Shown one piece after another: positions 37,913 to 64,000 of a DNA stretch of 64,000 nt. The DNA is from Archivesica marissinica (lineage: Eukaryota > Mollusca > Bivalvia > Venerida > Vesicomyidae). Location of the stretch: the NCBI GenBank assembly GCA_014843695.1, contig CM026402.1:14985374-15049373 (forward strand), written 5' to 3'. Made by a program: the position numbers and the translations under genes. Every line of letters begins with the position of its first letter. Positions within the stretch are counted from its first letter, which is position 1. The notes beneath the pieces were generated by a model. That model saw nothing but the letters and a program-made list of their open reading frames with translations, was not told the DNA's origin and did not search any database.

Positions 37913-37981
37913 GTATATTCTTGTGACGTTGTTGGTGTGGTCATTTGTGTTTGGAGTTACCATCTCGTATTGTTTCATCAG
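37913..37981 (+). CDS. SNX14: SNX14 exon: transmembrane segment
   Basis: 69 nt. Acceptor 'cacttttcag', donor 'cag|gtatag'. One base finishes the previous codon, 22 codons follow, and two bases (AG) pass to the next exon. It encodes 'YILVTLLVWSFVFGVTISYC', a hydrophobic helix matching the second N-terminal hydrophobic stretch of SNX14. The donor is the first of a long run of near-identical copies in the array at 37976-42045. Confidence 0.8.
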
Positions 37982-40900
37982 GTATAGTATTCATCGTGTG
38001 TATATTAATACTTACTGTGCATGGTTACATCAGGTATAGTGTATATTAATACTTACTGTGTATGGTTACATCAGGTATAGTGTATATTAATACTTACTGT
38101 GCATGGTTACATCAGGTATAGTGTATATTAATACTTACTGTGTATGGTTACATCAGGTATAGTGTATATTAATACTTACTGTGTATGGTTACATCAGGTA
38201 TAGTGTATATTAATACTTACTGTGCCTGGTTACATCAGGTGTAGTATTCATCATGTGTATATTAATACTTACTGTGCATGGTTACATCAGGTATAGTATT
38301 CATCGTGTGTATATTAATACTTACTGTGCATGGTTACATCAGGTGTAGTATTCATCATGTGTATATTAATACTTACTGTGCATGGTTACATCAGGTGTAG
38401 TGTATATTAATACTTACTGTGCATGGTTACATCAGGTGTAGTATTCATCGTGTGTATATTAATACTTACTGTGCATGGTTACATCAGGTATGGTATTCAT
38501 CATGTGTATATTAATACTTACTGTGCATGGTTACATCAGGTATGGTATTCATCATGTGTATATTAATACTTACTGTGCATGGTTACATCAGGTGTAGTAT
38601 TCATTGTGTGTATATTAATACTTACTGTGCATGGTTACATCTGGTGTGGTATTCATCGTGTGTATATTAATACTTACTGTGCATGGTTACATCAGGTATA
38701 GTGTATATTAATACTTACTGTGCATGGTTACATCAGGTGTAGTATTCATTGTGTGTATATTAATACTTACTGTGCATGGTTACATCAGGTGTAGTATTCA
38801 TTGTGTGTATATTAATACTTACTGTGCATGGTTACATCAGGTATAGTGTATATTAATACTTACTGTGCATGGTTACATCAGGTGTAGTGTATATTAATAC
38901 TTAACGTGCATGGTTACATCAGGTATAGTGTATATTAATACTTACTGTGCATGGTTACATCAGGTGTAGTATTCATTGTGTGTATATTAATACTTAACGT
39001 GCATGGTTACATCAGGTATAGTGTATATTAATACTTACTGTGCATGGTTACATCAGGTGTAGTATTCATTGTGTATATTAATACTTAATGTGCATGGTTA
39101 CATCAGGTATAGTGTATATTAATACTTACTGTGCATGGTTACATCAGGTGTAGATTCATCATGTGATATTAATACTTACTGTGCATGGTTACATCAGGTG
39201 TAGTGTATATTAATACTTACTGTGCATGGTTACATCAGGTGTAGTGTATATTAATACTTACTGTGTATGGTTACATCAGGTATAGTGTATATTAATACTT
39301 ACTGTGCATGGTTACATCAGGTGTAGTGTATATTAATACTTACTGTGCATGGTTACATCAGGTGTAGTATTCATTGTGTGTATATTAATACTTACTGTGC
39401 ATGGTTACATCTGGTGTGGTGTTATTTTTTGTGTGGTTCATCGGTTGTGTATATTAATACTTACTGTGCATGGTTACATCAGGTATAGTGTATATTAATA
39501 CTTACTGTGCATGGTTACATCAGGTGTAGTATTCATTGTGTGTATATTAATACTTACTGTGCATGGTTACATCAGGTGTAGTATTCATTGTGTGTATATT
39601 AATACTTACTGTGCATGGTTACATCAGGTATAGTGTATATAATACTTACTGTGCATGGTTACATCAGGTGTAGTGTATATTAATACTTAACGTGCATGGT
39701 TACATCAGGTATAGTGTATATTAATACTTACTGTGCATGGTTACATCAGTGTAGTATTCATTGTGTGTATATTAATACTTACTGTGTATGGTTACATCAG
39801 GTATAGTGTATATTAATACTTACTGTGTATGGTTACATCAGGTATAGTGTATATTAATACTTACTGTGTATGGTTACATCAGGTATAGTGTATATTAATA
39901 CTTACTGTGTATGGTTACATCAGGTATAGTGTATATTAATACTTACTGTGTATGGTTACATCAGGTATAGTGTATATTAATACTTACTGTGTATGGTTAC
40001 ATCAGGTATAGTGTATATTAATACTTACTGTGTATGGTTACATCAGGTATAGTGTATATTAATACTTACTGTGTATGGTTACATCAGGTATAGTGTATAT
40101 TAATACTTACTGTGTATGGTTACATCAGGTATAGTGTATATTAATACTTACTGTGTATGGTTACATCAGGTATAGTGTATATTAATACTTACTGTGTATG
40201 GTTACATCAGGTATAGTGTATATTAATACTTACTGTGTATGGTTACATCAGGTATAGTGTATATTAATACTTACTGTGTATGGTTACATCAGGTGTAGTA
40301 TTCATTGTGTGTATATTAATACTTAACGTGCATGGTTACATCAGGTATAGTATTCATCGTGTGTATATTAATACTTACTGTGCATGGTTACATCAGGTGT
40401 AGTATTCATCATGTGTATATTAATACTTACTGTGTATGGTTACATCAGGTATAGTGTATATTAATACTTAATGTGCATGGTTACATCAGGTATAGTGTAT
40501 ATTAATACTTACTGTGCATGGTTACATCAGGTGTAGTATTCATCATGTGTATATTAATACTTACTGTGCATGGTTACATCAGGTATAGTGTATATTAATA
40601 CTTACTGTGCATGGTTACATCAGGTATAGTGTATATTAATACTTACTGTGCATGGTTACATCAGGTATAGTGTATATTAATACTTACTGTGCATGGTTAC
40701 ATCAGGTATAGTGTATATTAATACTTACTGTGCCTGGTTACATCAGGTGTAGTATTCATCATGTGTATATTAATACTTACTGTGCATGGTTACATCAGGT
40801 GTAGTATTCATTGTGTGTATATTAATACTTACTGTGCATGGTTACATCAGGTATAGTAATCATTGTGTGTATATTAATACTTACTGTGCATGGTTACATC

Positions 40901-42045
40901 AGGTGTAGTATTCATCATGTGTATATTAATACTTAACGTGCATGGTTACATCAGGTATAGTGTATATTAATACTTAATGTGCATGGTTACATCAGGTATA
41001 GTGTATATTAATACTTAATGTGCATGGTTACATCAGGTATGGTATTCATCATGCGTATATTAATACTTACTGTGCATGGTTACATCTGGTGTAGTATTCA
41101 TCATGTGTATATTAATACTTAACGTGCATGGTTACATCAGGTATAGTGTATATTAATACTTAATGTGCATGGTTACATCAGGTATAGTGTATATTAATAC
41201 TTAACGTGCATGGTTACATCAGGTATAGTGTATATTAATACTTACTGTGCATGGTTACATCAGGTGTAGTATTCATCATGTGTATATTAATACTTAACGT
41301 GCATGGTTACATCAGGTATAGTGTATATTAATACTTACTGTGCATGGTTACATCATGTATAGTGTATATTAATACTTACTGTGCATGGTTACATCTGGTG
41401 TAGTATTCATCATGTGTATATTAATACTTACTGTGTATGGTTACATCAGGTATAGTGTATATTAATACTTACTGTGCATGGTTACATCAGGTATAGTGTA
41501 TATTAATGCTTACTGTGCATGGTTACATCAGGTATAGTGTATATTAATACTTACTGTGCATGGTTACATCAGGTATAGTATTCATTGTGTGTATATTAAT
41601 ACTTACTGTGCATGGTTACATCAGGTGTAGTATTCATTGTGTGTATATTAATACTTAATGTGCATGGTTACATCAGGTGTGGTATTCATCGTGTGTATAT
41701 TAATACTTACTGTGCATGGTTACATCAGGTGTAGTATTCATTGTGTGTATATTAATACTTACTGTGCATGGTTACATCAGGTATAGTGTATATTAATACT
41801 TACTGTGCATGGTTACATCAGGTGTAGTGTATATTAATACTTACTGTGCATGGTTACATCAGGTGTAGTATTCATTGTGTGTATATTAATACTTACTGTG
41901 CATGGTTACATCAGGTGTAGTGTATATTAATACTTACTGTGCATGGTTACATCAGGTATAGTGTATATTAATACTTACTGTGCATGGTTACATCAGGTAT
42001 AGTGTATATTAATACTTACTGTGCATGGTTACATCAGGTATGGTA
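37976..42045. repeat. 41/50-bp minisatellite built on an SNX14 5' splice site, about 90 units
   Basis: The unit contains 'ggttacatcaggtatagtgt' and 'atattaatacttactgtgca' (41 bp), or a longer form of about 50 bp with 'gtagtattcatcgtgtgt'. Each unit repeats 'catcag|gtatag', the same bases as the authentic exon-intron junction at 37981/37982. It fills most of the 4.9-kb intron. Around 39418-39450 the repeat is broken by a T/G-rich segment. Confidence 0.95.
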
Positions 42046-42054
42046 TTCAGTATT

Positions 42055-42540
42055 CAGAGCAAAGCACCTTGTTGCAAAACTTGAATCTCTCTCTTGTGGC
42101 AAAAGTTCTACGTTGTAAAATGCATTGCGAAACTTGGATCTCTCTCTCGTGGCAAAAGTTCTACGTTGTAAAATGTATTGCGAAACTTGGATCTCTCTCT
42201 CGTGGCAAAAGTTCTACGTTGTAAAATGTATTGCGAAACTTGGATATCTCTGCCGTTGCAAAAGTTCTATGTTGTAAAATGTATTGCAAAACTTGGATCT
42301 CTCTCTCGTGGCAAAAGTTCTACGTTGTAAAATGTATTGCGAAACTTGGATATCTCTGCTGTTGCAAAAGTTCTATGTTGTAAAATGTATTGCAAAACTT
42401 GGATATCTCTGCCGTTGCAAAAGTTCTATGTTGTAAAATGTATTGCAAAACTTGGATATCTCTGCTGTTGCAAAAGTTCTATGTTGTAAAATGTATTGCA
42501 AAACTTGGATTTCTCTGTCGTTGCAAAAGTTCATCGTTGA
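42055..42540. repeat. 53-bp minisatellite, about 9 units
   Basis: The unit contains 'ctctcgtggcaaaagttcta', 'cgttgtaaaatgtattgcga' and 'aacttggat'. Two subtypes (ctctcgtgg and ctgccgttg) alternate in the second half. It lies in the same SNX14 intron, next to the donor-derived array. Confidence 0.9.
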
Positions 42541-42853
42541 CATGACGATTTATTTTACAATGAAAAAAGAAGCGAACAATTCGGAATCAAGAAATTTGTT
42601 TGTTTTAAAGGGAATTCCAATTTTAGATGGGTTCCGGTTTTGAGGGGTTTCACTGTATAAAGTCATTAACTATATATGTCCTGTAGTCCTATAGTATGTC
42701 TATATAGTAAGTCCTGGTATAATGTTCAATATACATGTTGTATGCTGCTTTATAGATGTTGCTAAATCACACAAAATGTCTGTCAAACATGATACTGAAC
42801 TGGAAAATTATTAATGTTTAAAATATTAAATTCACATATATTTTGTGTTTCAG

Positions 42854-42911
42854 TCGAGATCTATTACTGCCTAACTTGCTACCATTGTTCCAGATTGGAA
42901 GAGGCAAAAAG
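42854..42911 (+). CDS. SNX14: SNX14 exon: juxtamembrane segment
   Basis: 58 nt. Acceptor 'ttttgtgtttcag', donor 'gtacct'. One base completes a serine codon, then 'RDLLLPNLLPLFQIGRGKK'. It aligns with the 'LLPN' segment just after the SNX14 transmembrane helix. Short but phase-consistent on both sides. Confidence 0.75.
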
Positions 42912-43150
42912 GTACCTATTTCTATTTCAACAGAGATTGAATAAAATTGAATGATATAGGGGTTTTTTCTAGAGCAGATTGGCATGGTGCTCCGCCTTGC
43001 CCTTATTAAACCCTGCCTCTTTTCTGACCCACCCTGCCCTTTTTTCAAATCTAGAATAAACCATATGATAGCAAGCTTCTTAGAACCTGTTGAGAAGCAA
43101 TGTTCAGCAGAGAAACTAATTGAACATATTAACAAAATCAATCCATTACA

Positions 43151-43345
43151 GCCCGCCTCCGTGGTCGAGTGGTTAAGGTCGCTGACTTGTATACCACTGT
43201 AACCTATCATCACTGATGGTTACGGGTTCGAGCCCCACTCAGGCCGTGTCTCATTTATATGAAAAAGTTGGCAGTTTCTTACGGAAGTTGGTGCACCCAA
43301 GTACTGGTTAACCGCTGGAGCCTGCCCAGGAAAGGTGTTGTTAGG
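43151..43345 (+). mobile_element. SINE family D, 3' end replaced by a minisatellite
   Basis: Full tRNA-like head 'gcctccgtggtcgagtggtt' and 'gggttcgagccccactcagg', body to 'ggaaaggtgttgttagg'. The usual 3' end ('aaactgcccgtcggcgat', as at 54190-54458) is missing, and the 34-bp array starts at exactly this point. Confidence 0.82.
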
Positions 43346-46300
43346 GGTCATTGTCGTGGTTTACTGTGAAAGGGTCATTGATATATGTAGTGGTTTACTG
43401 TGAAGAGGTCATTGATATATGTAGTGGTTTACTGTGAAGAGGTCATTGATATATGCAATGGTCTACTGTGAAAGGGTCATTGATATATGTAATGGTCTAC
43501 TGTGAAGGGGTCATTGATATATGTAATGGTCTACTGTGAAGGGGTCATTAACATATGTAATGGTTTACTGTGAATGGGTCATTAATATATGTAATGGTTT
43601 ACTGTGAATGGGTCATTGATATATGTAATGGTTTACTGTGAAGGGGTCATTGATATATGTAATGTTTTACTGTGAAGGGTTCATTGATATATGTAGTGGT
43701 TTACTGTGAAGGGGTCATTAATATATGTAATGGTTTACTGTGAAGGGGTCATTGATATATATAATGGTCTACTGTGAAGGGGTCATTGATATATGTAACG
43801 GTTTACTGTGAAGGGGTCATTAATATATGTAATGGTTTACTGTGAATGGGTCATTGATATATGTAGTGGTTTACTGTGAAGGGTTCATTGATATATGTAG
43901 TGATTTACTGTGAAGGGGTCATTAACATATGTAATGGTTTACTGTGAATGGGTCATTAATATATGTAATGGTTTACTGTGAATGGGTCATTGATATATGT
44001 AATGGTTTACTGTGAAGGGGTCATTGATATATGTAATGTTTTACTGTGAAGGGGTCATTGATATATGTAGTGGTTTACTGTGAAGGGTTCATTGATATAT
44101 GTAGTGATTTACTGTGAAGGGGTCATTAATATATGTAATGGTTTACTGTGAAGTGGTCATTGATATATATAATGGTCTACTGTGAAGGGATCATTGATAT
44201 ATGTAATGGTTTACTGTGAAGGGTTCATTGATATATGTAATAGTTTACTGTGAAGAGGTCATTGATATATAATGGTCTACTGTGAAGGGATCATTGATAT
44301 ATGTAATGGTTTACTGTGAAGGGTTCATTGATATATGTAATAGTTTACTGTGAAGGGGTCATTGATATATGTAATGTTTTACTGTGAAGGGTTCATTGAT
44401 ATATGTAGTGGTTTACTGTGAAGGGGTCATTGATATATGTAATGGTTTACTGTGAAGGGGTCATTGATATATGTAATGGTTTACTGTGAAGGGGTCATTA
44501 ATATATGTAATGGTTTACTGTGAATGGGTCATTGATATATGTAGTGGTTTACTGTGAAGGGTTCATTGATATATGTAGTGATTTACTGTGAAGGGGTCAT
44601 TAATATATGTAATGGTTTACTGTGAAGTGGTCATTGATATATATAATGGTCTACTGTGAAGGGATCATTGATATATGTAATGGTTTACTGTGAAGGGTTC
44701 ATTGATATATGTAATAGTTTACTGTGAAGAGGTCATTGATATATGTAATGGTTTACTGTGAAAGGTTCATTGATATATGTAATGGTTTACTGTGAAGGGT
44801 TCATTGATATATGTAATAGTTTACTGTGAAGGGTTCATTGATATATGTAGTGGTTTACTGTGAAGGGTTCATTGATATATGTAGTGATTTACTGTGAAGG
44901 GGTCATTAATATATGTAATGGTTTACTGTGAAGTGGTCATTGATATATATAATGGTCTACTGTGAAGGGATCATTGATATATGTAATGGTTTACTGTGAA
45001 GGGGTCATTAATATATGTAATGGTTTACTGTGAAGGGGTCATTGATATATATAATGGTTTACTGTGAAGGGTTCATTGATATATGTAATAGTTTACTGTG
45101 AAGAGGTCATTGATATATGTAATGGTTTACTGTGAAAGGTTCATTGATATATGTAATGGTTTACTGTGAAGGGTTCATTGATATATGTAATAGTTTACTG
45201 TGAAGGGTTCATTGATATATGTAATAGTTTACTGTGAAGGGTTCATTGATATATGTAGTTGTTTACTGTAAAGGGGTCATTGATATATGTAATAGTTTAC
45301 TGTGAAGGGTTCATTGATATATGTAATAGTTTACTGTGAAGGGTTCATTGATATATGTAATAGTTTACTGTGAAGGGTTCATTGATATATGTAATAGTTT
45401 ACTGTGAAAGGTTCATTGATATATGTAATGGTTTACTGTGAAGAGGTCATTGATATATGTAATGGTTTACTGTGAAGGGTTCATTGATATATGTAATAGT
45501 TTACTGTGAAGGGTTCATTGATATATGTAGTTGTTTACTGTAAAGGGGTCATTGATATATAATGGTATACTGTGAAGGGGTCATTGAGATATGTAGTTGT
45601 TTACTGTAAAGGGGTCATTGATATATGTAATAGTTTACTGTGAAGGGTTCATTGATATATGTAGTTGTTTACTGTAAAGGGGTCATTGATATATAATGGT
45701 CTACTGTGAAGGGGTCATTGAGATATGTAGTGGTCTACTGTGAAGGGTTCATTGATATATTTAATAGTTTACTGTGAAGGGGTCATTGAGATATGTAGTT
45801 GTTTACTGTGAAGGGTTCATTGATATATGTAGTTGTTTACTGTGAAGGGGTCATTGATATATAATGGTATACTGTGAAGGGGTCATTGAGATATGTAGTT
45901 GTTTACTGTGAAGGGTTCATTGATATATGTAGTGGTCTACTGTGAAGGGTTCATTGATATATAATGGTCTACTGTGAATGGGTCATTGATATATGTAGTT
46001 GTTTAGTGTGAAGGGGTCATTGATATATGTAATGGTTTACTATGAAGGGTTCATTGATATATGTAATGGTTTACTGTGAAGGGGTCATTGATATATGTAA
46101 TGGTCTACTGTGAAGGGGTCATTTATATATATAATGGTTTACCGTGAAGGGGTCATTGAGATATATAATTGTCTACTGTGAAGGGATCATTGATATATGT
46201 AATAGTTTACTGTGAAGGCGTCATTGATATATAATGGTCTACTGTGAAGGGGTCATTGATATATGTAATGGTTTACTATGAAGGGTTCATTGATATATGT

Positions 46301-46870
46301 AATGGTTTACTGTGAAGGGGTCATTGATATATGTAATGGTCTACTGTGAAGGGGTCATTGATATATATAATGGTTTACCGTGAAGGGGTCATTGAGATAT
46401 GTAATGGTCTACTGTGAAGGGATCATTGATATATGTAATGGTTTACTGTGAAGGGATCATTGATATATGTAATGGTTTACTATGAAGGGTTCATTGATAT
46501 ATGTAATGGTTTACTGTGAAGGGGTCATTGCTATATGTAATGGTCTACTGTGAAGGGGTCATTGATATATATAATGGTTTACCGTGAAGGGGTCATTGAG
46601 ATATGTAATGGTCTACTGTGAAGGGATCATTGATATATGTAATGGTTTACTGTGAAGGGATCATTGATATATGTAATGGTCTACTGTGAATGGGTCATTG
46701 ATATATGTAATGGTCTACTGTGAAGGGGTCATTGATATATGTAATGGTTTACTGTGAAGGGGTCATTGATATATGTAATGGTCTACTGTGAAGGGGTCAT
46801 TGATATATGTAATGGTTTACTGTGAAGGGGTCAATGATATAAGTAATGGTCTACTGTGAAGGGATCATTG
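43346..46870. repeat. 34-bp minisatellite, about 104 units
   Basis: The unit contains 'ggtcattgatatatgtaatg' and 'gtttactgtgaagg'. Variants: gagata, taatata, tagtt, ggttca, and a form lacking 'gt'. Blocks of several units recur (43900-44220 resembles 44560-44720 and 44880-45000), so block duplication has occurred. It fills most of the SNX14 intron 42912-47308. Confidence 0.95.
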
Positions 46871-47175
46871 AGATATGTAGCATAACCCAGGACAATACTG
46901 CAGTATAACCCAGGACAATACTGAGGAAAAACCTGGGACAATACTGCAGTATAACCCAGGACAATACTGAGGAAAAACCTGGGACAATACTGCAGTATAA
47001 CCCGGGACAATACTGAGGAAAAACCTGGGACAATACTGTGCAGTATAACCCAGGACATTACTACAGTATAGCCCGGGATAATACTGAGGCTTAACCCGGG
47101 ACATTAATTACTACAGTATAACCTGGGTTAATACTGAGGCATAACCTCGGAAATTACTACAGTATAGCCCGTTAT
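46871..47175. repeat. About 46-bp composite minisatellite (two 23-bp half units)
   Basis: Half units 'cagtataacccaggacaata' and 'gaggaaaaacctgggacaat' alternate, then degenerate to 'cagtatagcccgggata'. It adjoins the 34-bp array without a gap. Confidence 0.85.
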
Positions 47176-47308
47176 ATTAGCGCCTTGTATCTATTGGCCT
47201 GTTCCGAACTTACCGGGGACCAAGGTCCAAGAAGCTTGAGACTGAGTTTGAGATTGGAGACAGTTTTATACCCTTTAAGTCAGGTTTAGAAGTTACTCTT
47301 AATTACAG

Positions 47309-47391
47309 AATGATGCCGATATTGATGACGAGTTCACATTGATGAAGACCATTTGCACAGTGTGTGGACAAAGACGTTGTCCCAGACACAG
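47309..47391 (+). CDS. SNX14: SNX14 exon: cysteine-rich linker
   Basis: 83 nt. Acceptor 'aattacag', donor 'cacag|gtatat'. 27 codons plus two bases. It encodes an acidic stretch then 'CTVCGQRRCPRHR', matching the conserved CxxC...C.RHR segment between the membrane anchor and PXA domain of SNX14. The codon for the last R is split across the intron (AG|A). Confidence 0.88.
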
Positions 47392-48228
47392 GTATATGTA
47401 CACTATATCATTTATTATCCCTGGGCTGGTATATGTACACTATATCATTTATTATCCAGGTATATGTACACTATATCATTTATTATCCCGGTATATGTAC
47501 ACTATATCATTTATTATCCCGGTATATGTACACTATATCATTTATTATCCAGGTATATGTACACTATATCATTTATTATCCTGGTATATGTACACTATAT
47601 AATTTATTATCCTGGTATATGTACACTATATCATTTATTATCCCGGTATATGTACACTATATCATTTATTATCCCGGTATATGTACACTATATCATTTAT
47701 TATCCTGGTATATGTACACTATATCATTTATTATCCCGGTATATGTACACTATATCATTTATTATCCAGGTATATGTACACTATATCATTTATTATCCAG
47801 GTATATGTACACTATATCATTTATTATCCAGGTATATATACACTATATCATTTATTATCCTGGTATATATACACTATATCATTCATTATCCTGGTATATA
47901 AACACTATATCATTTATTATCCAGGTATATGTACACTATATCATTTATTATCCAGGTATATATACACTATATCATTATTATCCAGGTATATGTACACTAT
48001 CATTTATTATCCAGGTATATATACACTATATCATTATTATTCTGGTATATGTACACTATATCATTTATTATCCCGATATATGTACACTATATCATTTATT
48101 ATCCAGGTATATGTACACTATATCATTTATTATCCAGGTATATGTACACTATATCATTTATTATCCCGGTATATGTACACTATGTTATTTATTATCCTCG
48201 TATATGTACATTACATCATTTATTATCC
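47392..48228. repeat. 31-bp minisatellite starting at an SNX14 splice donor, about 27 units
   Basis: The unit contains 'ggtatatgtacactatatca' and 'tttattatcca'. The first unit begins exactly at the donor: exon 'cacag' then 'gtatatgtacac'. Later units carry 'ccag|gtatat', 'cccg|gtatat' or 'cctg|gtatat'. Units missing one base around 47970-48040 shift the frame. Confidence 0.95.
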
Positions 48229-50437: not shown

Positions 50438-50516
50438 ACCAGAGTTAAACATTCTAGCATTCCAGCCTTGGACATGCCTGGAGGTACGTCAGTCCGTTGA
50501 CCTTGCTTGTGAAGAA
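50438..50516 (+). CDS. SNX14: SNX14 exon: start of PXA domain
   Basis: 79 nt. Acceptor 'gatttatttcag', donor 'gaagaa|gtacgt'. It encodes 'PELNILAFQPWTCLEV' then 'RQSVDLACEE'. The QPW motif and spacing to the next exon align without gaps with human SNX14. An internal GTACGT at 50483 would end the exon 33 nt early; the alignment favours the later donor. Confidence 0.85.
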
Positions 50517-52200: not shown

Positions 52201-52244
52201 TTCCTTACCATTGTGTTGAATGAGTTTGTGTACACGTGGTATAA
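52201..52244 (+). CDS. SNX14: SNX14 exon: PXA domain
   Basis: 44 nt. Acceptor 'ttttgtgatttcag', donor 'gtaagt'. It encodes 'FLTIVLNEFVYTWY' with two bases of a following lysine codon. The 'NEFVYTWY' segment is characteristic of PXA domains. Confidence 0.88.
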
Positions 52245-53265: not shown

Positions 53266-53353
53266 GAATGTGAGTAAGGATGAGGAATTTGTGGATGAAC
53301 TGAGGACGTCCATCAGATTTCTGTTCTCGGTTTTGTTACGAAGGATTAAGAAA
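53266..53353 (+). CDS. SNX14: SNX14 exon: PXA domain
   Basis: 88 nt. Acceptor 'gattatgtttcag', donor 'gtaagt'. The first base completes a lysine codon, then 29 codons including 'NVSKDEEFVDELRTSIRF' and 'SVLLRRIKK'. A strong match to the core of the SNX14 PXA domain. Confidence 0.9.
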
Positions 53354-54189: not shown

Positions 54190-54458
54190 GTCCGCCTCCG
54201 TGGTCGTGTGGTTAAGGTCGCTGACTTGTATACCACTGTAACCTATCATCACTGATGGTCACGGGTTTGAGCCCCGCTCAGACCGTGTCTCATTTATATG
54301 AAAAAGTTGGCAGTTTCTTACGGAGGTTGGTGCACCCAAGTACTGGTTAACCGCTGAAGCCTGCCCAGGAAAGGTGTTGTTAGGTAAACTGCCCGTCGGC
54401 GATATAGCCCTAAATGGTGCTGATGCAGGCGTAAAACCCGAATCATAACATAACATAA
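54190..54458 (+). mobile_element. tRNA-derived SINE (family D), complete
   Basis: Head 'ccgcctccgtggtcgtgtgg' and 'gggtttgagccccgctcaga', body 'atgaaaaagttggcagtttc', 3' end 'ctgcccgtcggcgatatagc' and 'gatgcaggcgtaaaaccc'. The reference copy for family D. Confidence 0.85.
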
Positions 54459-54552
54459 TTGTAGAGAGAATCCAAGCTTCTGATTGAATCCACATGTCTT
54501 TATAGTGTGTATAATCATTTGTTGTTATATTATTATGACAAATAAATTATAA

Positions 54553-55666
54553 TTAATATAATTCAACACCAAGTAACTGACATGGACTGGTACATGATAT
54601 TTTTAGACCAATAAATTAATAAGAAAATTATACTTGGGCCAGTTCATTTATCAAAATTTTGTTTAAAAATTAGGTATGGCAACGAATAGCAATTTAACTG
54701 TTCGAATATTCGGTCAGTAAGGTATTCAAATATTCGGATATTTGGTATAGTTCTATTAAAAACTCAAAATCACTCAAAAACTCTTATAATAAATGCCAAA
54801 TTAATCTTCTTCCTGTAAGGACATGCAAATATGACGACGATTCATTCAGTTATTGTTATCGGCCACTGTACATTTATGGGCATTTTCACAAATGAAGCCG
54901 ATGTCACTTGAAATGCTTTCCGTTGAAGTGTGTTTGTTTTTCAAATGATTATTCAGATTGATGTCGTACCCGAATCTGTTAAATCCAATTTGCACATAGC
55001 AGTTTTCTTATTCTCTGCGCGATTGTAGTCTTTCCAAATGTATGACTGTGTGGGCGGCATTTTTTTGAGGACAACATTATAAAGATCGTATTTTATAATA
55101 TTATAGTACTTTTGGGTAGTAATTATAAATTTAAGAAACACTGGGTGGATGTTGCAGCTTGTCTGTAATATTTAAAGGAATTTTCTCGTCTAAACAGTTT
55201 TGACATCATAATTAAACACCTTAGCACCTACTGTAATTATCCAATTACATGGCAGAGTGTCAATTAACACTTGCCATGGATGCGACCACAACATTGTTTA
55301 TTCAAACATCCTGGGGCAATTTCTGTATTGGAAGGTTTTATGATGGCCTCAGAAAGAAAGCAACGTATCGGATTTATGACAGTTTATATCATTTTTGCAA
55401 ATATTATATATTGTTCCCGAATAATCGAATAATGGAATAGTATTCGGATATTCGGACGTTTGAGTGAATATTCGAATAGTCGAATGTTCGTTGCCATCCC
55501 TACTAAAAATAGTAATATTACTGGCAAAGAAGTGCAGATCCTGATGAGATGGCTCGTCATGAGTGAGCCAGCTATCAACGAGCCGGCTATCATGAGCGAG
55601 CCGGCTCATCTGGATCTTACACTTCTTGTAAGCATATTTAGCAGTCTGTAGTGTTGAAAGGGTTAA
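54553..55666 (-). mobile_element. piggyBac-like MITE (family P1) split by a hAT insertion
   Basis: TTAA at 54553-54556 and 55663-55666. Left part 'attcaacaccaagtaactga' and right part 'tgtagtgttgaaaggg' match 16037-16280. The interruption lies where that copy reads 'tttctaaaaatagtt'. The hairpin region is enlarged by an extra 'gagccagctatcaacgagcc' duplication. Confidence 0.8.
54671..55502 (-). mobile_element. hAT element with BED-finger remnant, nested in MITE P1
   Basis: Termini 'taggtatggcaacgaatag' and 'gttcgttgccatcccta'. It is flanked by 8-bp duplications 'ttaaaaat' (54663-54670) and 'ctaaaaat' (55503-55510), the hAT size. On the minus strand around 54960-55060 a broken BED-like finger is visible ('RAENKKTAMCKLDL'; one zinc-ligand cysteine of the pair is lost compared with the copy at 51153). 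Length 832 bp, no transposase core, AT-rich with many 'gaatattcg' motifs near both ends. Confidence 0.82.
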
Positions 55667-55682
55667 ACAAACTGATTTACAG

Positions 55683-55767
55683 GTTGATGTGCCCGGTATG
55701 GTGGCTCAGCGACTTAGCAGGGCTGGTCTTCAACACTTGCATGCTGTCCTGCAGGCAAAGTCTACAG
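55683..55767 (+). CDS. SNX14: SNX14 exon: PXA domain
   Basis: 85 nt. Acceptor 'ctgatttacag', donor 'gtgagt'. It encodes 'VDVPGMVAQRLSRAGLQHLH' and 'AVLQAKST', matching the human VDIPS...LLKA..KH segment; one base passes to the next exon. Confidence 0.85.
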
Positions 55768-56218
55768 GTGAGTTTATCTACACTAAGATTAATGCTTTCA
55801 ACCGTCTATGGACTCTTGTTGTAGGAGTGTGAGGGCTATTAACCCTATATTACTGTATATATTACCTATATGGACTATTCTACCATCAAAAATGGAATCT
55901 TCTGAGGGTGTGAGGGTTAAACAAGTCCAGACATATTGTCTGGGTTAGAGAGTTGACCTGATTTTCAGAATCTACAAAGACGATTTGTCTGGATTCAAAT
56001 GTTTTTCTTTAAAGGTAATTGAAATGGACTGCAAGTGGTACTGATGGTGCAAGTGGGGCTTTGTTTGCAGCAGCGGCCAGTATATACATGATATACGGAG
56101 ATAGACTAGCTTCTAGCGGGGTCAAGCCTCACTTACAGTGACTTCGTATGGGCAGACCTTCATAATCTCGAACACACCATTAACATCTTCTGTATCTACT
56201 GTTGATGGTTAATGTACA

Positions 56219-56396
56219 ATCAAACCTGTGTTTGTGGTCACCTCCATTAAGCATCCAACCAGTATTCAGCAGCCAGTTTCCAGATTACCAATATGTTGTT
56301 TTATTATACATTTGACCTCTATTAAGCAGTCACCTGTGCTGTGCAGCCATTTTCTGTAATTCCATTATCTGGCTGCTTAAGACAGGTTTGACTGTT
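56219..56396. mobile_element. TIR element (MITE family Q), intact length
   Basis: Termini 'caatcaaacctgtgtttgtg' and 'gacaggtttgactgt'; interior 'attaagcatccaaccag', 'ccaatatgttgttttatta' and 'tctggctgcttaa'. The best full copy of the family. The end is followed by a partial duplication of its tail (56415-56460). Confidence 0.7.
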
Positions 56397-56529
56397 TGTA
56401 ATATTAAGTTTAATAGAGTCATTATTTGACTGCTTAAGACAGGTTTGTTTGACTGTATGTAATATTAAGTTTAATAGAGTCATTATTTGTAGTAACAATT
56501 ATTATAACACCTATGTTTATTCACTATAG

Positions 56530-56686
56530 CTACTGATGGCGCTGATATTCAAGAAGTGACACTAAGCTACCTCGGCTCGAATCTCCACTATGCCATGCAC
56601 AGCCGCAAGGCTGAGCAGGAATATATACGTAGATTGGTGGAGAAACTGTTTCCATACATCCTCAGACCACAGGCTTTAGAGTCAAA
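56530..56686 (+). CDS. SNX14: SNX14 exon: PXA domain, largest exon here
   Basis: 157 nt. Acceptor 'ttcactatag', donor 'aaa|gtaggt'. Two bases complete an alanine codon, then 51 codons including 'YLGSNLHYAMHSRKAEQEYI' and 'RRLVEKLFPYILRP'. The 'LFPYIL' motif is a PXA hallmark. 56687-57284 in the following intron shows no recognised element. Confidence 0.9.
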
Positions 56687-57284
56687 GTAGGTTTGATGTA
56701 CACAGGTAACGTTAAAGGTTAAAGAGGTTATCATTATAATGGCAAATTGCCAATTTATTATATGACCCTCGTTATAAAATTACTTAAACAGTAACGTTAA
56801 GTACACATTTTCTATTCCGTTCCAAAAATATTTGTTACATCGCAGCTATATGCAGAGTTAGCTCGCATCTAAAATAGGCACTGTTGGAAATCGAGTCAAT
56901 TTAGAACACTAACATGAGCTGTTAGACCAATGCCCTAAAATGGAATGAAGTGTGTGTGACGATATGTACGAATTAATTACAGTCGTATTTGAGGTCTGTT
57001 TAATATTTAATTACGCCTAACATGCTGTGTAAAAGCGAGAAAAGTAGTCCGGCTACAGATATGATATGGATTGTTAAGACGTCTGGTGTGATACAAGGTC
57101 TTGTATCCCACTGACGAATACAACATGTATTTTGTGGTGGATTTATCATGTGTTTATAATAAATTATATGATGACTAAGATTGTGTAGTCTCTTCAAGAA
57201 CAAGGTTAAACCAAGTGATCACAAGACCATTAAGATATTCTTACAAATCAGCCAATTCACTGCATCTGTTGTTTAGGATATACA

Positions 57285-57732
57285 TCAAGCAAACAGTTGC
57301 TAGGTTACAGTGTGTATATTATATTGACATGGAAATATAAACAAACAGTTGCTAGGTTACAGTGTGTATATTATATTGACATGGAAATATAAACAAATGG
57401 TTGTTAGGTTACAGTGTGTCAAATGGTTGCTAGGTTACAGTGTGTACATTATATTGACATGGAAATATAAACAAATGGTTGCTAGGTTAGTGTGTCAAAT
57501 GGTTGCTAGGTTACAGTGTGTACATTATACTGATATGGAAATATAGACAAACAGTTGCTAGGTGACAGTGTGTCAAATGATTGCTAGGTTACAGTGTGTA
57601 CATTATATTGACATGGAAATATAACCAAATGGTTGCTAGGTTACAGTGTGTACATTATATTGACATGGAAATATAAACAAACGGTTGCTAGGTTACAGTG
57701 TGTACATTATATTGACATGGAAATATAAACGC
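57285..57732. repeat. About 52-bp minisatellite, 8-9 units, some shortened
   Basis: The unit contains 'ggttgctaggttacagtgtg', 'tacattatattgacatggaa' and 'atataaacaaa'. Short forms stop after 'gtgtcaaat'. It ends about 45 bp before the acceptor of the exon at 57777. Confidence 0.9.
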
Positions 57733-57776
57733 CAAAGGATGTTCACCTGTAATATTGTTGTTTGTGTGTATTGCAG

Positions 57777-57852
57777 ATCAATGTGTGCATTGCTTCGAGA
57801 GATTTTAGCAGCTTCCGTGATCATGCCGGCGATGGATGCTATAGCCAATCCT
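57777..57852 (+). CDS. SNX14: SNX14 exon: end of PXA domain
   Basis: 76 nt. Acceptor 'gtgtgtattgcag', donor 'gtatgt'. It completes a lysine codon, then 'SMCALLREILAASVIMPAMD' and 'AIANP'. 'LLREIL' is the most conserved PXA helix motif. 57853-58829 (intron) shows no recognised element. Confidence 0.9.
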
Positions 57853-58829
57853 GTATGTATTTCATTGTGTAAAATATAACGCAAAACATCATATTTGGCA
57901 CAACAGTGTCTAGTTGTTAACAGATTGTCAGCACGCACATATTGTCTTTCAGCTCTTATAAATCTGTCAAATTGACACCCATATATTTTTATAATATATG
58001 TATACAACACTTAACATTATATGCATGGTCTACAGCACAGCGGTTTAATCCTTTTATTCCCACTTGCTGTTGTCCAGTAGTACTCTTATTCCCACTTCAT
58101 AGGTAAATGACCATTCCAAATTGTTGGCGAATGCACAAGTTCAAATTGAGTTTGTCCGCAACAAACGCGGTGGACAAAGTCTTGTTATTGGTGGTTACAG
58201 GTTCATAGTATGTATATATATAGTTGCTGTCTGTCTGCGTGTCTGTCCATCCGTTTGATTGTATTTGATCTTAAACACTCATAAACACACTGCAACACAA
58301 ATCCTCTTATTCCCACACCCATTTTTACCTAATTTTATATAAGTGGGAACAATAGGACTACACCAGCACAGGCACCAGACCCATTTTTGGCCTATGGTCA
58401 TATAGTAAGTAATGTTTACTAAAGGCAACCAACGAAATTGAAACATGCATGCAGAAACATCGACGAGAAACTAAGTACAAACGACCAGATCACTGATATG
58501 CCCTTGTGGTCCCGACCGGAAGACCTTATTCTATCAACAAATACTTTTTATTTCATGGAGATCGGTCAAATAACACCACAATGGCACATTGTTTCATCGT
58601 GAACAGCAGGAAATGAAAATGTTTGTTTGTGTCTTGTGCCTGTGGTCTACAGTTAAGAAAGCAGACATTTATTGTGTTAATGGCTGTGTTAGTTGCCCAG
58701 AATCATTTATGCCGTGACAACTTTAAGCAAAATTATATAGTGAGGCTGTGTTGAGGGGCATAATATTATGTTGTACAATGTTGACAGTTTTCTTGTTTAT
58801 TTCATTTAGATTGTTTTGTTCTATTACAG

Positions 58830-58874
58830 GATATGGTGAACGACATATTACTAGTTATTCTTGATGAAATGCCT
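58830..58874 (+). CDS. SNX14: SNX14 exon: PXA C-terminal extension
   Basis: 45 nt, phase 0 at both ends. Acceptor 'ttctattacag', donor 'gtaagt'. It encodes 'DMVNDILLVILDEMP', matching 'DTVNHLLIIFID' of human SNX14. Confidence 0.85.
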
Positions 58875-58948
58875 GTAAGTTTATTACCAAACATTTATAA
58901 GTGGAATCAGAATAGACTTGTGTTGACTGTATGAAGTTATTCTAAAGT

Positions 58949-59178
58949 GGAAGTCATGATAGCGCAGTGGATGCATGTTTACTTCAGGTGTGAAAGGTTC
59001 GAGCCCCGCTGGAGCCGTTACGATTGTGCCCTTAGGCAAGGCATTTAAATTCCACGTTGCCTCTTCTCTCTCTCTCATGGCAATGGATTCCATCAGGAAT
59101 GAGGTCTCGAGAGTGATTAATATAAATTGTAAGAATTTGTTTTGCAATTGAGCTAAAATAAATTTGTATAAACTATTC
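58949..59178 (+). mobile_element. SINE family B
   Basis: Head 'tggaagtcatgatagcgcag', B box 'gttcgagccccgctgg', body 'gtgcccttaggcaaggcatt', 3' end 'ttgagctaaaataaatttgt'. It has a small deletion before the B box. It is flanked by 'gttattctaaag' and 'aactattctaaag', so a target duplication containing 'ttctaaag' is likely. Confidence 0.85.
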
Positions 59179-59380
59179 TAAAGTTTAAATACTGTTCAAA
59201 GTGCCCAATGCAAGTGGTTAATTTTCTGTATTTCATTCGTATAATGTAAAATTTGCTTAAAATTATTATGAAATTTCTTATAATGGTGTCATTTCCTTTT
59301 CTGTCTATTTTATTAAAACAGATATTTTTTAATTGGAACTTGACACAAAACTGGATTTATATTTTTCTACATAATAAGCA

Positions 59381-59678
59381 CAGGGTTCATTCTAGGTCAG
59401 AATTTTTGGGAGAAGTGAGAAAGCACGTGATCGCTTCCTTAAATGGTGTTCCTTAATATACTTCTGCAAAATAGGGTTAAAATGCACAGTACAACCATTA
59501 AATACAACATTTGAATAGGAGTGCTTTATAATGGGCCAGTGAATCTTACTAGACAAAATTTTGTTTGAAAATCGTAAAAACCAACAAATTTATTAGGGAG
59601 AAGTGGGGCCCCCAGAGGGCGAAGTCAGGGTCCCTACGGCGACAATTTCGCCCACATCGCCCTCTAGAATGATCCCTG
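59381..59678. mobile_element. TIR DNA element (family T), 298 bp
   Basis: Termini CAGGGTTCATTCTAG and CTAGAATGATCCCTG (one mismatch) flanked by AAGCA at 59376-59380 and 59679-59683. Related copy at 60489-60971; short remnant at 12537-12590. 59679-60088 is otherwise unrecognised. Confidence 0.7.
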
Positions 59679-60088
59679 AAGCATTACATTATGATATACA
59701 TGTATAATAGCACCAGTCTGTAGTCATATAATAATTAATATATTTCAAGTAATATTGTAGCATTTATTTTTTATAAGACATACAGCTATTGGTTCTTCTG
59801 ATACCTAGACCTTTAATATGATGCAGATGATAAACTGTTCCAGGACATCATTAACAAGAATTGCAACACCTTCACTATTGTGTTTTGTTGCACTGAAATA
59901 TGCATCACCTTTCCACTCTCATTTCCAATGATTCTATCTCTCTATTTCCCTGACCCTGCCCCGTCTCAAAAGCAAACAATGCATACTATATGACCAAAGC
60001 TGCAATAATCCAGTTATAAATTTTCTGGTCATCATTTTATAATGTCAATCTATTATGCAATTGCAGTATTGAAAGGATCAGATCAACG

Positions 60089-60380
60089 CAGATGGATCTG
60101 TAGTCCAGTGGTAACATGCTGGACTGGTAATCCAGGGATCGCAGGTTCACTCCCCTGTCTGACCCTAATAAGATTAACAGTCTTTCAGATTGGACGTTAA
60201 GCTGAGGTCTCGTGTCAGTGCTTTACACCGTGCACGTAAAAGAACCAGAGGAGACTCTGGAATGGGTCTCTGTCTGTGTCATTGCACTACCCTTCAAAAG
60301 TCTAAAATGACTAATCTCTTCAGGAGGCATCGCTTATATGGGCAACCAGTAGCAACGATAAATAGACGTAAAACACACAC
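60089..60380 (+). mobile_element. tRNA-derived SINE (family A)
   Basis: Head 'gatggatctgtagtccagtg' and 'gggatcgcaggttcac', body 'gtgcacgtaaaagaaccaga', 3' end 'agcaacgataaatagacgta'. A 109-codon frame at 60190-60519 crosses it and is not a gene. Confidence 0.85.
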
Positions 60381-60488
60381 AGATCAGATGAACTCTTGGA
60401 AACAATCTTCAATCTCAATTATCCAACTCAGCACAATTAATGATCAAAGTCATCAGTCATTCTCATGTTGTTGGAGAAACATGTCACT

Positions 60489-60971
60489 CTGGACTCATTC
60501 TAGAGGGCGACTTGGGTGAATATTTTTTGATTTTCATACAAAATGTTGTCCAGTAAGATACACTGGCCCTTTCTTTAGTTTATACAATTTTATTTGAGCT
60601 CGATTGCGAAACAAGTTCTTATAACTTATATTAATCACTCTCGAGACCTCATTCCTGATGGAATCCATCGCCACAAGGGAGAGAGAAGAGGCATGTGGAA
60701 TTTAAATGCCTTGCCTAAGGGCACAATCGTAATGGCTCCAACGGGGCTCGAACTCCGGGCCTTTCGCACATGAAGCGAACCCGCAACCACTGAGCTATCA
60801 CGACTTCCACAGATTTAGAAAGCACTCCTATTCAAACATTGTATTTAATGGTCATACTGTGTATGTTAACCCTATTGTGTTGATATTTTATTAAATAACA
60901 CTATTTAATGTTGTAATCGCACGCTTTCTCACTTCTCCCAAAATCCTCTGACCTAGAATGAGCCCAGAGCC
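60489..60971. mobile_element. TIR DNA element (family T), inverted and interrupted by SINE B
   Basis: Ends 'ctggactcattctagagggc' and 'tgacctagaatgagcccag' are family T termini in reverse orientation. 'aagcactcctattcaaa' and 'tttctcacttctcccaaaat' match the interior of 59381-59678. SINE B occupies 60577-60810. Confidence 0.65.
60577..60810 (-). mobile_element. SINE family B, nested in a TIR element
   Basis: Reverse complement of 12129-12366: 'gagctcgattgcgaaacaag', 'ggaatccatcgccacaaggg' and 'tatcacgacttccac'. Inserted in the family T element at 60489-60971. Confidence 0.85.
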
Positions 60972-61233
60972 AGAGGTTATAAAACTTTTCTCAGATCTCA
61001 AACTCCCTCAAATGATCTGATTGGTTGATTCTGAGTGTTACTGCCAGCTGAACCAACCAGACACTTGAGACTGAGTTTTGAGATTGGAGAACAGTTTTAT
61101 AACCTCAGGCACTGGTTATAGCTTGTGTGACTGTAGTGTTCAAGAATAAGCAACTGAAAATCCGTCCACTGAAATCAGTTGTAGCATGCTATCGTGAATA
61201 GTGATGAATGCATTGAGCATTGTATTGTTGCAG

Positions 61234-61347
61234 TCACCTCTTCCTGCAGAACCACCTTCACCAATGGTAGCATTCCTGGCAAACTTCAGTAATCAGATCC
61301 CGGGATCCCTTAGTGATCCCGAACAAACAGCAAAAATCAGTAAATCG
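61234..61347 (+). CDS. SNX14: SNX14 exon: linker between PXA and RGS domains
   Basis: 114 nt, phase 0 at both ends. Acceptor 'ttgtattgttgcag', donor 'gtaagt'. It encodes 'SPLPAEPPSPMVAFLANFSN' and 'SLSDPEQTAKISKS'. 'PPSPMVAFLANF' matches 'PASPLVPFLQKF' of human SNX14. Confidence 0.85.
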
Positions 61348-61375
61348 GTAAGTATGCAGTTTTACTATCTAGCTT

Positions 61376-61583
61376 TGTATGTTCCATTAATGTCAAACCC
61401 CTTGCGGGAACCTAGACATGTTTTCCTGGGCAGGCTTAGCCAACCTAAGTGGTTAACCAGTACTAAGCAATGTGTGTGAGGTGCCTTGCTCACTGACACT
61501 ACATACGTGGCCTGACCGAGTATCGAACCCGGGACCGTTCGATTCCAAATCCGACGCTCTACCACTGGACCACGGACGCCACT
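61376..61583 (-). mobile_element. tRNA-derived SINE (family E), reference copy
   Basis: On the minus strand: head 'ggcgtccgtggtccagtggt' and B box 'gggttcgatactcggtcagg', body to 'aggtttgacattaatgg' type 3' sequence. It starts only 29 bp after the SNX14 donor at 61348. A short purine-rich tract (61669-61703) follows. Confidence 0.8.
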
Positions 61584-61986
61584 TGCATGCTTTGGATCAT
61601 GGTCAGTGTTTCTAATTTTACCTCATTTATTTACTCTTAATCAGTGTTTCAGCCATATCTTTTATCCAAGAGAGAGGGGGAGGGGAGAGGAGGAGAGGAG
61701 AGAGCATTTGGTCGAGTCACCAATCTTTCCCCTAATATAGTAGAAAGGTCTAACCCGTTTGCTTCAGGTGTGCGAGGCCCGGAATTTGCGCCAAGCTGTA
61801 GCCGTTATGATAGTGTCAATTTGGAAGACACATAAATTCCACATTGCCTCTATCATTTTGGATTGGTTACATCCGGATTGAGCGTGTCCCACAAACGAAA
61901 GGTACGATTGTTTGCCACTATGTTGTAAATATAGAAACAATGTTGATAAAGAAGTACTGTTTCATCATGAGCATTTATGCTTGCAG

Positions 61987-62107
61987 AGTCTACGTTTCGT
62001 ATTGGGCGATGTTATGGATCCTGAAAAGCCCTCTATGTTATACCCATTCATGCAGTTCTTGAAGAGTGAAGCGGCTGTGAACGTCCTACAGTTCGCTCTG
62101 GCATGTG
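61987..62107 (+). CDS. SNX14: SNX14 exon: start of RGS domain
   Basis: 121 nt. Acceptor 'catttatgcttgcag', donor 'gcatgtg|gtatgt'. 40 codons plus one base. It encodes 'SLRFVLGDVMDPEKPSMLYP' then 'FMQFLKSEAAVNVLQFALAC', matching the RGS start of SNX14 ('FMNFLKQEGAVHVLQF'). Its last 25 bases and donor are the template of the array that follows. Confidence 0.85.
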
Positions 62108-64000
62108 GTATGTTCATCCTACTTAATGTCCTACAGTTCGCTCTGGCATGTGGTATGTTCATCCTACTTAATGTCCTACAGTTCGCTCTGGCATGTTGTA
62201 TGTTCATCCTACTTAATGTCCTACAGTTCGCTCTGGCATGTTGTATGTTCATCCTACTTAATGTCCTACAGTTGCTCGGCATGTGGTATGTCATCTACTT
62301 AACGCCTACAGTTCGCTCTGGCATGTGGTATGTTCACCTACTTAACGTCCTACAGTTCGCTCTGGCATGTGGTATGTTCATCCTACTGTTGTTGGTGTGG
62401 TTTTTTTAATGTCTACAGTTCGCTCTGGCATGTGGAGTTCATCCTACTTAATGTCTACAGTCGCTCTGGCTGTTGTATGTTCATCACTTAACGTCTACAG
62501 TTCGCTCTGGCATGTAGTATGTGCATCCTACTTAACGTCCTACAGTTTGCTCTGGCATGTGGTATGTTCATCCTACTTAACGTCCTACAGTTCGCTCTGG
62601 CATGTGGTATGTTCATCCTACTTAATGTCCTACAGTTTGCTCTGGCATGTGGTATGTTCATCCTACTTAACGTCCTACAGTTCGCTCTGGCATGTGGTAT
62701 GTTCATCCTACTTAACGTCCTACAGTTTGCTCTGGCATGTGGTATGTTCATCCTACTTAACGTCCTACAGTTCGCTCTGGCATGTGGTATGTTCATCCTA
62801 CTTAACGTCCTACAGTTCGCTCTGGCATGTTCATCCTACTTAATGTCCTACAGTTCGCTCTGGCATGTGGTATGTTCATCCTACTTAACGTCCTACAGTT
62901 CGCTCTGGCATGTGGTATGTTCATCCTACTTAACGTCCTACAGTTCGCTCTGGCATGTGGTATGTTCATCCTACTTAATGTCCTACAGTTCGCTCTGGCA
63001 TGTGGTATGTTCATCCTACTTAACGTCCTACAGTTCGCTCTGGCATGTGGTATGTTCATCCTACTTAACGTCCTACAGTTCGCTCTGGCATGTGGTATGT
63101 TCATCCTACTTAATGTCCTACAGTTCGCTCTGGCATGTGGTATGTTCATCCTACTTAACGTCCTACAGTTCGCTCTGGCATGTGGTATGTTCATCCTACT
63201 TAACGTCCTACAGTTCGCTCTGGCATGTGGTATGTTCATCCTACTTAATGTCCTACAGTTCGCTCTGGCATGTGGTATGTTCATCCTACTTAATGTCCTA
63301 CAGTTCGCTCTGGCATGTTGTATGTTCATCCTACTTAACGTCCTACAGTTCGCTCTGGCATGTAGTATGTTCATCCTACTTAACGTCCTACAGTTTGCTC
63401 TGGCATGTGGTATGTTCATCCTACTTAACGTCCTACAGTTTGCTCTGGCATGTGGTATGTTCATCCTACTTAATGTCCTACAGTTTGCTCTGGCATGTGG
63501 TATGTTCATCCTACTTAACGTCCTACAGTTCGCTCTGGCATGTGGTATGTTCATCCTACTTAACGTCCTACAGTTCGCTATGGCATGTGGTATGTTCATC
63601 CTACTTAACGTCCTACAGTTCGCTCTGGCATGTGGTATGTTCATCCTACTTAACGTCCTACAGTTCGCTCTGGCATGTTCATCCTACTTAACGTCCTACA
63701 GTTCGCTCTGGCATGTGGTATGTTCATCCTACTTAACGTCCTACAGTTCGCTCTGGCATGTGGTATGTTCATCCTACTTAACGTCCTACAGTTCGCTCTG
63801 GCATGTGGTATGTTCATCCTACTTAACGTCCTACAGTTCGCTCTGGCATGTGGTATGTTCATCCTACTTAACGTCCTACAGTTCGCTCTGGCATGTGGTA
63901 TGTTCATCCTACTTAACGTCCTACAGTTCGCTCTGGCATGTGGTATGTTCATCCTACTTAACGTCCTACAGTTCGCTCTGGCATGTTCATCCTACTTAAC
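62083..64000. repeat. 45-bp minisatellite derived from an SNX14 exon end and splice donor, about 42 units, runs off window
   Basis: The unit is 25 exon bases ('gtcctacagttcgctctggc' + 'atgtg') plus 20 intron bases ('gtatgttcatcctacttaac'). 62265-62520 is irregular, with many small deletions and a T/G-rich insertion at about 62388-62408; beyond that units are nearly identical. In the exon's frame the unit is open and reads 'LNVLQFALACGMFIL'. The array must sit in the intron before the next RGS exon. Confidence 0.95.

What the first reader, a model, noticed from the sequence alone, without database searches (positions are those of the whole stretch)
37976..64000. Three SNX14 introns open with minisatellites whose unit contains the 5' splice site
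At 37981/37982, 47391/47392 and 62107/62108 the array starts at or across the exon-intron junction, and each unit copies the donor (catcag|gtatag; cag|gtatat; atgtg|gtatgt). Three independent arrays with unrelated units in one gene is hard to explain by chance placement. All three donors are of the GTAT type, whereas most other donors here are GTAAG/GTAC/GTGAG (57853 is GTATGT without an array). This suggests a recurrent process that nucleates tandem duplication at splice donors, giving introns with tens of decoy donors. Possible effects: buffering of donor mutations, U1 titration, or variable exon ends.
Basis: partly seen in the sequence, partly recalled or inferred. Interest (0 to 1): 0.85.

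Follow-up and report, generated by a model that had tools for sequence, protein, structure and literature searches.

The report
Clam minisatellites copying exon-intron boundaries
In this repeat-packed clam genome, several tandem-repeat arrays grew out of the edges of exons and so hold dozens of extra splice sites; this is a known oddity of amphioxus genes, seen here in a mollusc, and it is not special to splice donors.

Summary
The three arrays are real. They begin at the donors of SNX14 exons 2, 4 and 13 (37982, 47392, 62108); each unit carries the donor (89, 27 and 106 donor-like sites). The units at exons 2 and 13 also copy about 15 and 30 nt of coding sequence. The window comes from a clam-like heterodont bivalve (1.54-Gb assembly).

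The interpretation needs changing. Exon 2's acceptor is duplicated too. More of SNX14 plus part of a second gene, ATP11B, add three donor-spanning and three acceptor-spanning arrays: 10 of 68 junctions (6 donors, 4 acceptors). ATP11B's arrayed donors are GTAAGT, so the GTAT rule fails. Over half the window is tandem array; random seeding alone predicts 1.4 junction-spanning arrays in the window (4 seen, P 0.042) and 2.5 outside it (6 seen, P 0.034). The excess is modest.

The feature matches amphioxus "mirages" (Adh3, globins, PGBD5, TnC); my searches found no mollusc report. Best explanation: ordinary minisatellite birth that included a junction, tolerated because splicing probably uses the outermost copy. 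Junction-directed nucleation stays possible. No transcripts of this species were available.

The parts
37831..37939 (+). Tandem duplication (55-bp unit, 2 copies) spanning the acceptor of SNX14 exon 2; both copies keep TTTTCAG and the first 27 nt of the exon
37913..37981 (+). SNX14 exon 2, with boundary duplications on both sides
   Evidence: open frame and orthologue alignment
37967..42041 (+). Array A1 (units of 41 and 52 nt, 89 donor-like sites) starting across the donor of exon 2 at 37982
   Evidence: TRF itself starts it at 37998
47309..47391 (+). SNX14 exon 4
47389..48228 (+). Array A2 (31-bp unit, 27 sites) starting at the donor of exon 4 at 47392; shares only CAG with the exon
61987..62107 (+). 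SNX14 exon 13; its last 30 nt recur in array A3
62080..64000 (+). Array A3 (45-bp unit) spanning the donor of exon 13 at 62108; continues to position 67404, then an assembly gap; the same array reappears upstream of exon 14 on contig C13
21654..21754 (+). SNX14 exon 1 (start codon 21654, donor GTTTGC, no array at the donor)

Best explanation
These are exon-intron boundary minisatellites of the kind called 'mirages' in amphioxus. Shown: this stretch of a clam-like genome is saturated with minisatellites, and some arrays include a splice junction together with 3 to about 44 nt of exon, at donors and acceptors alike, while the outermost copy belongs to the intact exon. Inferred: a short tandem duplication arose by ordinary slippage or repair at a place that happened to include a junction and then expanded by unequal exchange. 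Arrays that grew inside an exon would alter the protein and are lost; those whose outermost copy keeps the exon intact survive. Splicing is probably undisturbed because the exons are short and the introns mostly long, so that exon definition pairs the two sites closest around the exon and the decoys remain intronic. The arrays are most likely an unstable, neutral by-product without a function of their own.
For: Array density: 55% of the window, 23% and 39% of the flanks. Ten junction-spanning arrays in two genes, six at donors and four at acceptors. Random seeding alone predicts 3.83 of them. Reading across the outermost copies gives proteins that align to orthologues without insertions at the arrayed junctions (SNX14; ATP11B). 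ATP11B arrays have different copy numbers in the two gene copies of the assembly (14.2/20.4, 48.0/53.0, 5.5/4.5), as expected of unstable minisatellites. In amphioxus such structures were reported not to disturb regular splicing (passages of PMC3087553 and PMC3902484).
Against: Observed numbers exceed the random-seeding expectation about 2.5-fold (10 against 3.83, P 0.004; outside the window 6 against 2.47, P 0.034), which leaves room for a junction-specific process. No transcript of this species was seen, so use of the outermost sites is inferred from orthologues. Decoy donors are hardly decayed (for example 89 of 89, 106 of 106 and 48 of 48 sites keep GT), which a functional reading would also predict.
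Confidence: 0.68

Rival explanations
1. A junction-directed process raises the birth rate of tandem duplications at exon-intron boundaries, at donors and acceptors alike (for example breakage at the change of base composition, or at structures formed during transcription).
For: About 2.5-fold excess over random seeding: 10 against 3.83, P 0.004; outside the window 6 against 2.47, P 0.034, or 6 against 1.72, P 0.006 if only arrays of three or more copies are counted.
Against: Small numbers from two genes; the null is rough (unit length taken as seed length, no selection, array A3 counted twice). In the window alone P is 0.042 for four and 0.155 for three. No mechanism was tested.
Confidence: 0.25
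2. The decoy sites are useful: they buffer donor mutations, titrate U1, or give variable exon ends.
For: Most decoy donors keep GT. In the exon 13 array the first three decoys are in frame and would add 15 residues each without a stop; the ATP11B exon G unit is 48 nt and reads open over many units.
Against: Sister arrays at acceptors have lost AG in 3 of 6 (SNX14 exon 16) and 4 of 6 sites (ATP11B exon C), and 15 of 27 exon 4 units have lost AG|GT. The arrays at exons 2 and 4 would shift the frame. Orthologous proteins in the alignments show no such insertions.
Confidence: 0.05
3. Assembly artefact or wrong exon boundaries.
For: The assembly is imperfect here: SNX14 is split between contigs C17 and C13 at array A3, and an ATP11B segment occurs on both C17 and C4. 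Irregular units occur near 62270-62480.
Against: Open frame across the joined exons and close alignment to orthologues. The same 45-bp array flanks both broken ends of intron 13. The three ATP11B arrays are present in both copies.
Confidence: 0.02

Closest known systems
'Mirages' of amphioxus genes: globins BflGb6 and BflGb9 (PMC3087553, passages read), PGBD5 (PMC3902484, passages read), Adh3 (Canestro et al. 2002, not held, known through these two papers) and troponin C (cited in PMC3902484)
   Same: Minisatellite-like tandem duplications of exon-intron boundaries; at donors or acceptors; many units keep the splice signal; unit lengths of tens to about 160 nt; copy number differs between haplotypes.
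   Different: Here a bivalve mollusc, larger arrays (up to about 100 or more copies; the amphioxus globin and PGBD5 cases in those passages have 2 to 7), and splicing not yet tested.
Ordinary intronic minisatellites
   Same: Same genome, same unit lengths and array sizes; most arrays of the window are of this kind.
   Different: They do not include a splice junction or coding sequence.
Intron gain by tandem duplication of AG|GT proto-splice sites (Rogers 1989 and later work, cited in PMC3087553)
   Same: Units that run from GT to AG could in principle act as introns; in array A1, 84 of 89 sites keep AG|GT.
   Different: No new intron was shown; the exons here match those of orthologues, and intron positions in other species were not compared.

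Membership tests
Mirages (boundary minisatellites) | Tandem repeat array with minisatellite-size units | tested here: met
   units of 31 to 79 nt, 2 to 119.5 copies
Mirages (boundary minisatellites) | The unit spans an exon-intron boundary and copies exon sequence | tested here: met
   8 of 10 arrays copy about 10 to 44 exon nt; SNX14 exon 4 shares only 3 nt and exon 18 only 5 nt, so those two are weak
Mirages (boundary minisatellites) | Donor and acceptor boundaries can both be duplicated | tested here: met
   6 donors and 4 acceptors
Mirages (boundary minisatellites) | Length instability between haplotypes | tested here: inconclusive
   copy numbers differ between the C17 and C4 copies of ATP11B, but whether these are haplotypes or paralogues is not settled
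Mirages (boundary minisatellites) | Regular splicing is not disturbed | not testable with these tools
   no transcripts of the species; orthologous proteins agree with use of the outermost sites
Mirages (boundary minisatellites) | Somatic instability (reported for Adh3) | not testable with these tools
   needs tissue samples
   4 of 10 at acceptors
   3 of 6 arrayed donors are GTAT; the others are GTAGGT, GTAAGT, GTAAGT

The most novel reading that the evidence does not exclude
In this clam lineage exon-intron boundaries, donor and acceptor alike, give birth to tandem arrays two to three times more often than the rest of the gene, so that about one junction in seven carries between two and more than a hundred copies of its own splice site, and exon ends take part in the concerted evolution of their array (ATP11B exon G differs at two synonymous sites between its two copies, and both variants also occur in array units). 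The genome would be a large natural test of how splicing ignores identical decoys, and a source of in-frame exon lengthening.
Probability: 0.27. Interest if true: 0.72.

Novelty: new member of a known kind. Interest (0 to 1): 0.45.

Why it matters
In the papers I could find, boundary minisatellites are a curiosity of amphioxus with a suggested role in making new introns. Their presence in a bivalve, at 10 of 68 junctions of two genes and with up to about 100 copies, would mean that the phenomenon is wider and stronger than reported. It offers a direct test of splice-site choice: long series of identical sites of which probably only the outermost is used. There is a practical side: such an array splits SNX14 between two contigs in this assembly and can mislead gene prediction.

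Tried and rejected
Amphioxus as the source of the window was my first guess from the mirage literature; rejected because SNX14 matches bivalves best. Identification by SINE patterns in viral and prokaryote contigs found nothing. A reverse-transcriptase search (120 of 3464 hits listed) gave few named hits, the best Pinctada at 54%.

GTAT rule and donor-only nucleation: rejected. The simple proximity test is kept as a secondary result only, because it conditions on present array lengths. U1 pairing energies (U1 5' end recalled) are -5.3 to -9.4 kcal/mol at the three arrayed donors and -3.5 to -12.2 at the other ten: not informative.

A sample of dynein heavy-chain exons was planned, but that genome search did not complete. 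Twelve further ATP11B stretches on C4 were asked for and never answered either. The sample stays at two genes. A crk-like gene upstream in the window (named by eye and recall, no search run) has three junctions (2111, 2204, 4789), none inside an array; it is not in the statistics. SNX14 beyond exon 26 was not covered.

First gene models had exon 5 too short (ending at 50483), which left an 11-residue gap in the queries; corrected. One script failed and was mended. In the null model array A3 is counted twice and two merged units (117 and 167 nt) are longer than the real unit, which raises the expectation slightly. A1 is counted as junction-spanning on the unit comparison, although TRF starts it 16 nt inside the intron; without it the window has three spanning arrays (P 0.155).
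Full report
WHAT WAS CHECKED. The window holds 13 exons of SNX14 on the + strand: 21654-21754, 37913-37981, 42854-42911, 47309-47391, 50438-50516, 52201-52244, 53266-53353, 55683-55767, 56530-56686, 57777-57852, 58830-58874, 61234-61347 and 61987-62107 (end of exon 5 corrected). They form one open frame and carry a PXA domain (Pfam PF02194, E 3.9e-36). In the protein search with this sequence all 50 hits were listed, and the best named ones are bivalves: Mercenaria 76%, Mya 72%, Mactra 75%, Dreissena 70%. ATP11B (below) is 92% and 91% identical to Mercenaria and Ruditapes over 53 residues and 86% to both over 322. The window is therefore from a heterodont bivalve near the venerid clams; the species is not known to me. 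The assembly has 1.54 Gb in 2808 contigs.

THE THREE ARRAYS. They are present as described. At the donor of exon 2 there are 89 donor-like sites, spaced mostly 41 or 52 nt, GT intact in 89 and AG|GT in 84. At exon 4 there are 27 sites spaced mostly 31 nt, GT in 26 and AG|GT in 12. At exon 13, once the array is followed past the window to 67404, there are 106 sites, GT in all 106. The exon 13 unit matches the last 30 exon nt at 29 (coding for NVLQFALAC); the exon 2 unit matches the last 15 at 13; the exon 4 unit shares only CAG.

THE REST OF THE GENE. A genome search with the Mercenaria protein gave 16 matches, and residues from 372 on lie on contig C13. The piece upstream of exon 14 begins in the same 45-bp array that follows exon 13 on C17, so the gene is split in the assembly at this array. 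Thirteen more exons (14-26) were modelled from eight of the 16 loci and two further stretches; what follows exon 26 was not covered. They show a spanning array at the acceptor of exon 16 (79 nt, 6.2 copies), at the acceptor of exon 18 (49 nt, 16.1 copies) and at the donor of exon 25 (exon-bearing copies 45, 69 and 117 nt apart; the last 29 exon nt recur exactly; donor GTAGGT). Another array starts 17 nt after the donor of exon 26.

A SECOND GENE. In the stretch fetched downstream, behind assembly gaps, lie nine exons of the flippase ATP11B on the minus strand, between about 90.7 and 111.7 kb in window numbering. Three of 17 junctions carry a spanning array: the donor of exon D (31 nt, 14.2 copies), the donor of exon G (48 nt, 48 copies; the unit copies about 44 exon nt coding for LYNYVIPISLYVTV and the donor TAG|GTAAGT) and the acceptor of exon C (55 nt, 5.5 copies by TRF, AG lost in 4 of 6 sites). 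Two more arrays lie near but outside junctions (21 nt before the acceptor of exon F, 28 nt after the donor of exon H). A second copy of the gene lies on contig C4. Three stretches of it hold the same three arrays with other copy numbers: 20.4 against 14.2 at D, 53.0 against 48.0 at G, 4.5 against 5.5 at C. Whether C17 and C4 are haplotypes or paralogues is not settled; an adjoining stretch is 90% identical over 1057 columns. Exon G differs at two synonymous sites between the copies; the C17 exon variant occurs in 16 of 43 array units on C17 and the C4 exon variant in 3 of 46 units on C4. This fits exchange between exon end and array but does not prove it.

IS IT MORE THAN CHANCE? Arrays cover 55% of the window, 23% of 80 kb upstream and 39% of 120 kb downstream. 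I collapsed each array to one unit and dropped the units at random, leaving out places wholly inside exons. Window: 19 arrays, 25 junctions, expected 1.38, observed 4, P 0.042 (three or more: 0.155). SNX14 exons 1-26: 40 arrays, 51 junctions, expected 2.75, observed 7, P 0.018. SNX14 and ATP11B: 55 arrays, 68 junctions, expected 3.83, observed 10, P 0.004. Outside the window only: 36 arrays, 43 junctions, expected 2.47, observed 6, P 0.034; counting only arrays of three or more copies, 30 arrays, expected 1.72, P 0.006. ATP11B alone: expected 1.11, observed 3, P 0.09. An excess of about 2.5-fold is suggested, but two genes and a rough null keep it weak. Donors 6 of 34 and acceptors 4 of 34 do not differ (P 0.73). 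The GTAT link is 3 of 3 in the window (P 0.014), 3 of 4 in SNX14 (P 0.047) and 3 of 6 over both genes (P 0.086).

HOW IT PROBABLY WORKS. The outermost copy belongs to the intact exon in each of the ten cases, and the protein read across it aligns with relatives without an insertion at the arrayed junctions (the 11-residue gap comes from my short exon 5). The exons with both ends mapped are 41 to 220 nt long and the SNX14 introns of the window 0.6 to 16 kb. Exon definition (established knowledge, not tested here) would pair the nearest sites across such exons and ignore copies in the intron, on either side. The arrays then need no function. If decoys were used, the exon 13 array would add 15 residues per unit in frame for the first three units, the 48-nt unit of ATP11B exon G would add 16, and the arrays at exons 2 and 4 would shift the frame.

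WHAT IS KNOWN. Amphioxus 'mirages' are the same kind of thing: minisatellite-like tandem duplications of exon-intron boundaries at either end of exons, with AG/GT signals in many units, different copy numbers between haplotypes, and regular splicing according to the Adh3 data and globin RT-PCR. I read passages on this in PMC3087553 and PMC3902484; the original Adh3 paper is not held. I searched the library for the phenomenon in nine searches and saw no report of it in molluscs; the listings were partial (15 of 16; 12 of 103). I also looked at passages of a Lucina haemoglobin paper (PMC4732748), the hard clam genome paper (PMC7831173) and an earthworm metallothionein paper with intronic minisatellites (PMC12783039); those passages describe no array that spans a splice site. 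The library holds only openly licensed papers, so absence from print is not shown.

VERDICT. Observation confirmed and extended; restriction to donors and to GTAT not supported; best filed as a new member of a known kind in a new phylum. The open and interesting point is whether junctions seed arrays more often than other intron positions.

Noticed in passing
22043-36653: A 14.6-kb minisatellite of a 20-bp unit (about 732 copies) fills most of SNX14 intron 1.
   Followed up: no
62080 to 67404 on contig C17, and L032 (contig C13): SNX14 is split between two contigs of the assembly at array A3: exons 1-13 on C17, exons 14-26 on C13.
   Followed up: partly
Contig C17 behind the window (L008-L019) and contig C4 near 54.93-55.02 Mb: ATP11B exons occur on both contigs, and C4 itself shows a second set of exons for residues 450-636: unmerged haplotypes, misjoins or duplications.
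   Followed up: partly
37858: The upper copy of the duplicated exon 2 acceptor reads TTTTCAG|GTATAT, an acceptor directly followed by a donor-like sequence; it could in principle act as a recursive splice site.
   Followed up: no
37982-42041: The A1 unit contains ATACTTAC, the reverse complement of a perfect donor GTAAGTAT, so the antisense strand also carries donor-like sites.
   Followed up: no
39416-39445 and 62385-62412: Single irregular units with similar GTGTGGT-and-T-run inserts in two otherwise unrelated arrays; could be sequencing error or real.
   Followed up: no
19459-20373 (-) and 21063-21491 (+): Two partial non-LTR-type reverse transcriptase reading frames; the first has named hits to Pinctada (54%) and to a lucinid-symbiont assembly (52%).
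   Followed up: partly
60094-60166 (+); copies near 43151, 54193, 58943, 12124: A tRNA-like stretch (Rfam RF00005, ARAGORN tRNA-Thr) and recurring tRNA-derived SINE-like repeats (SINE nature judged by eye).
   Followed up: no
2111-2203 and 4789-4905 (+): Last two exons of a crk-like gene, named by eye and recall; an array ends 31 nt before the first of them.
   Followed up: no
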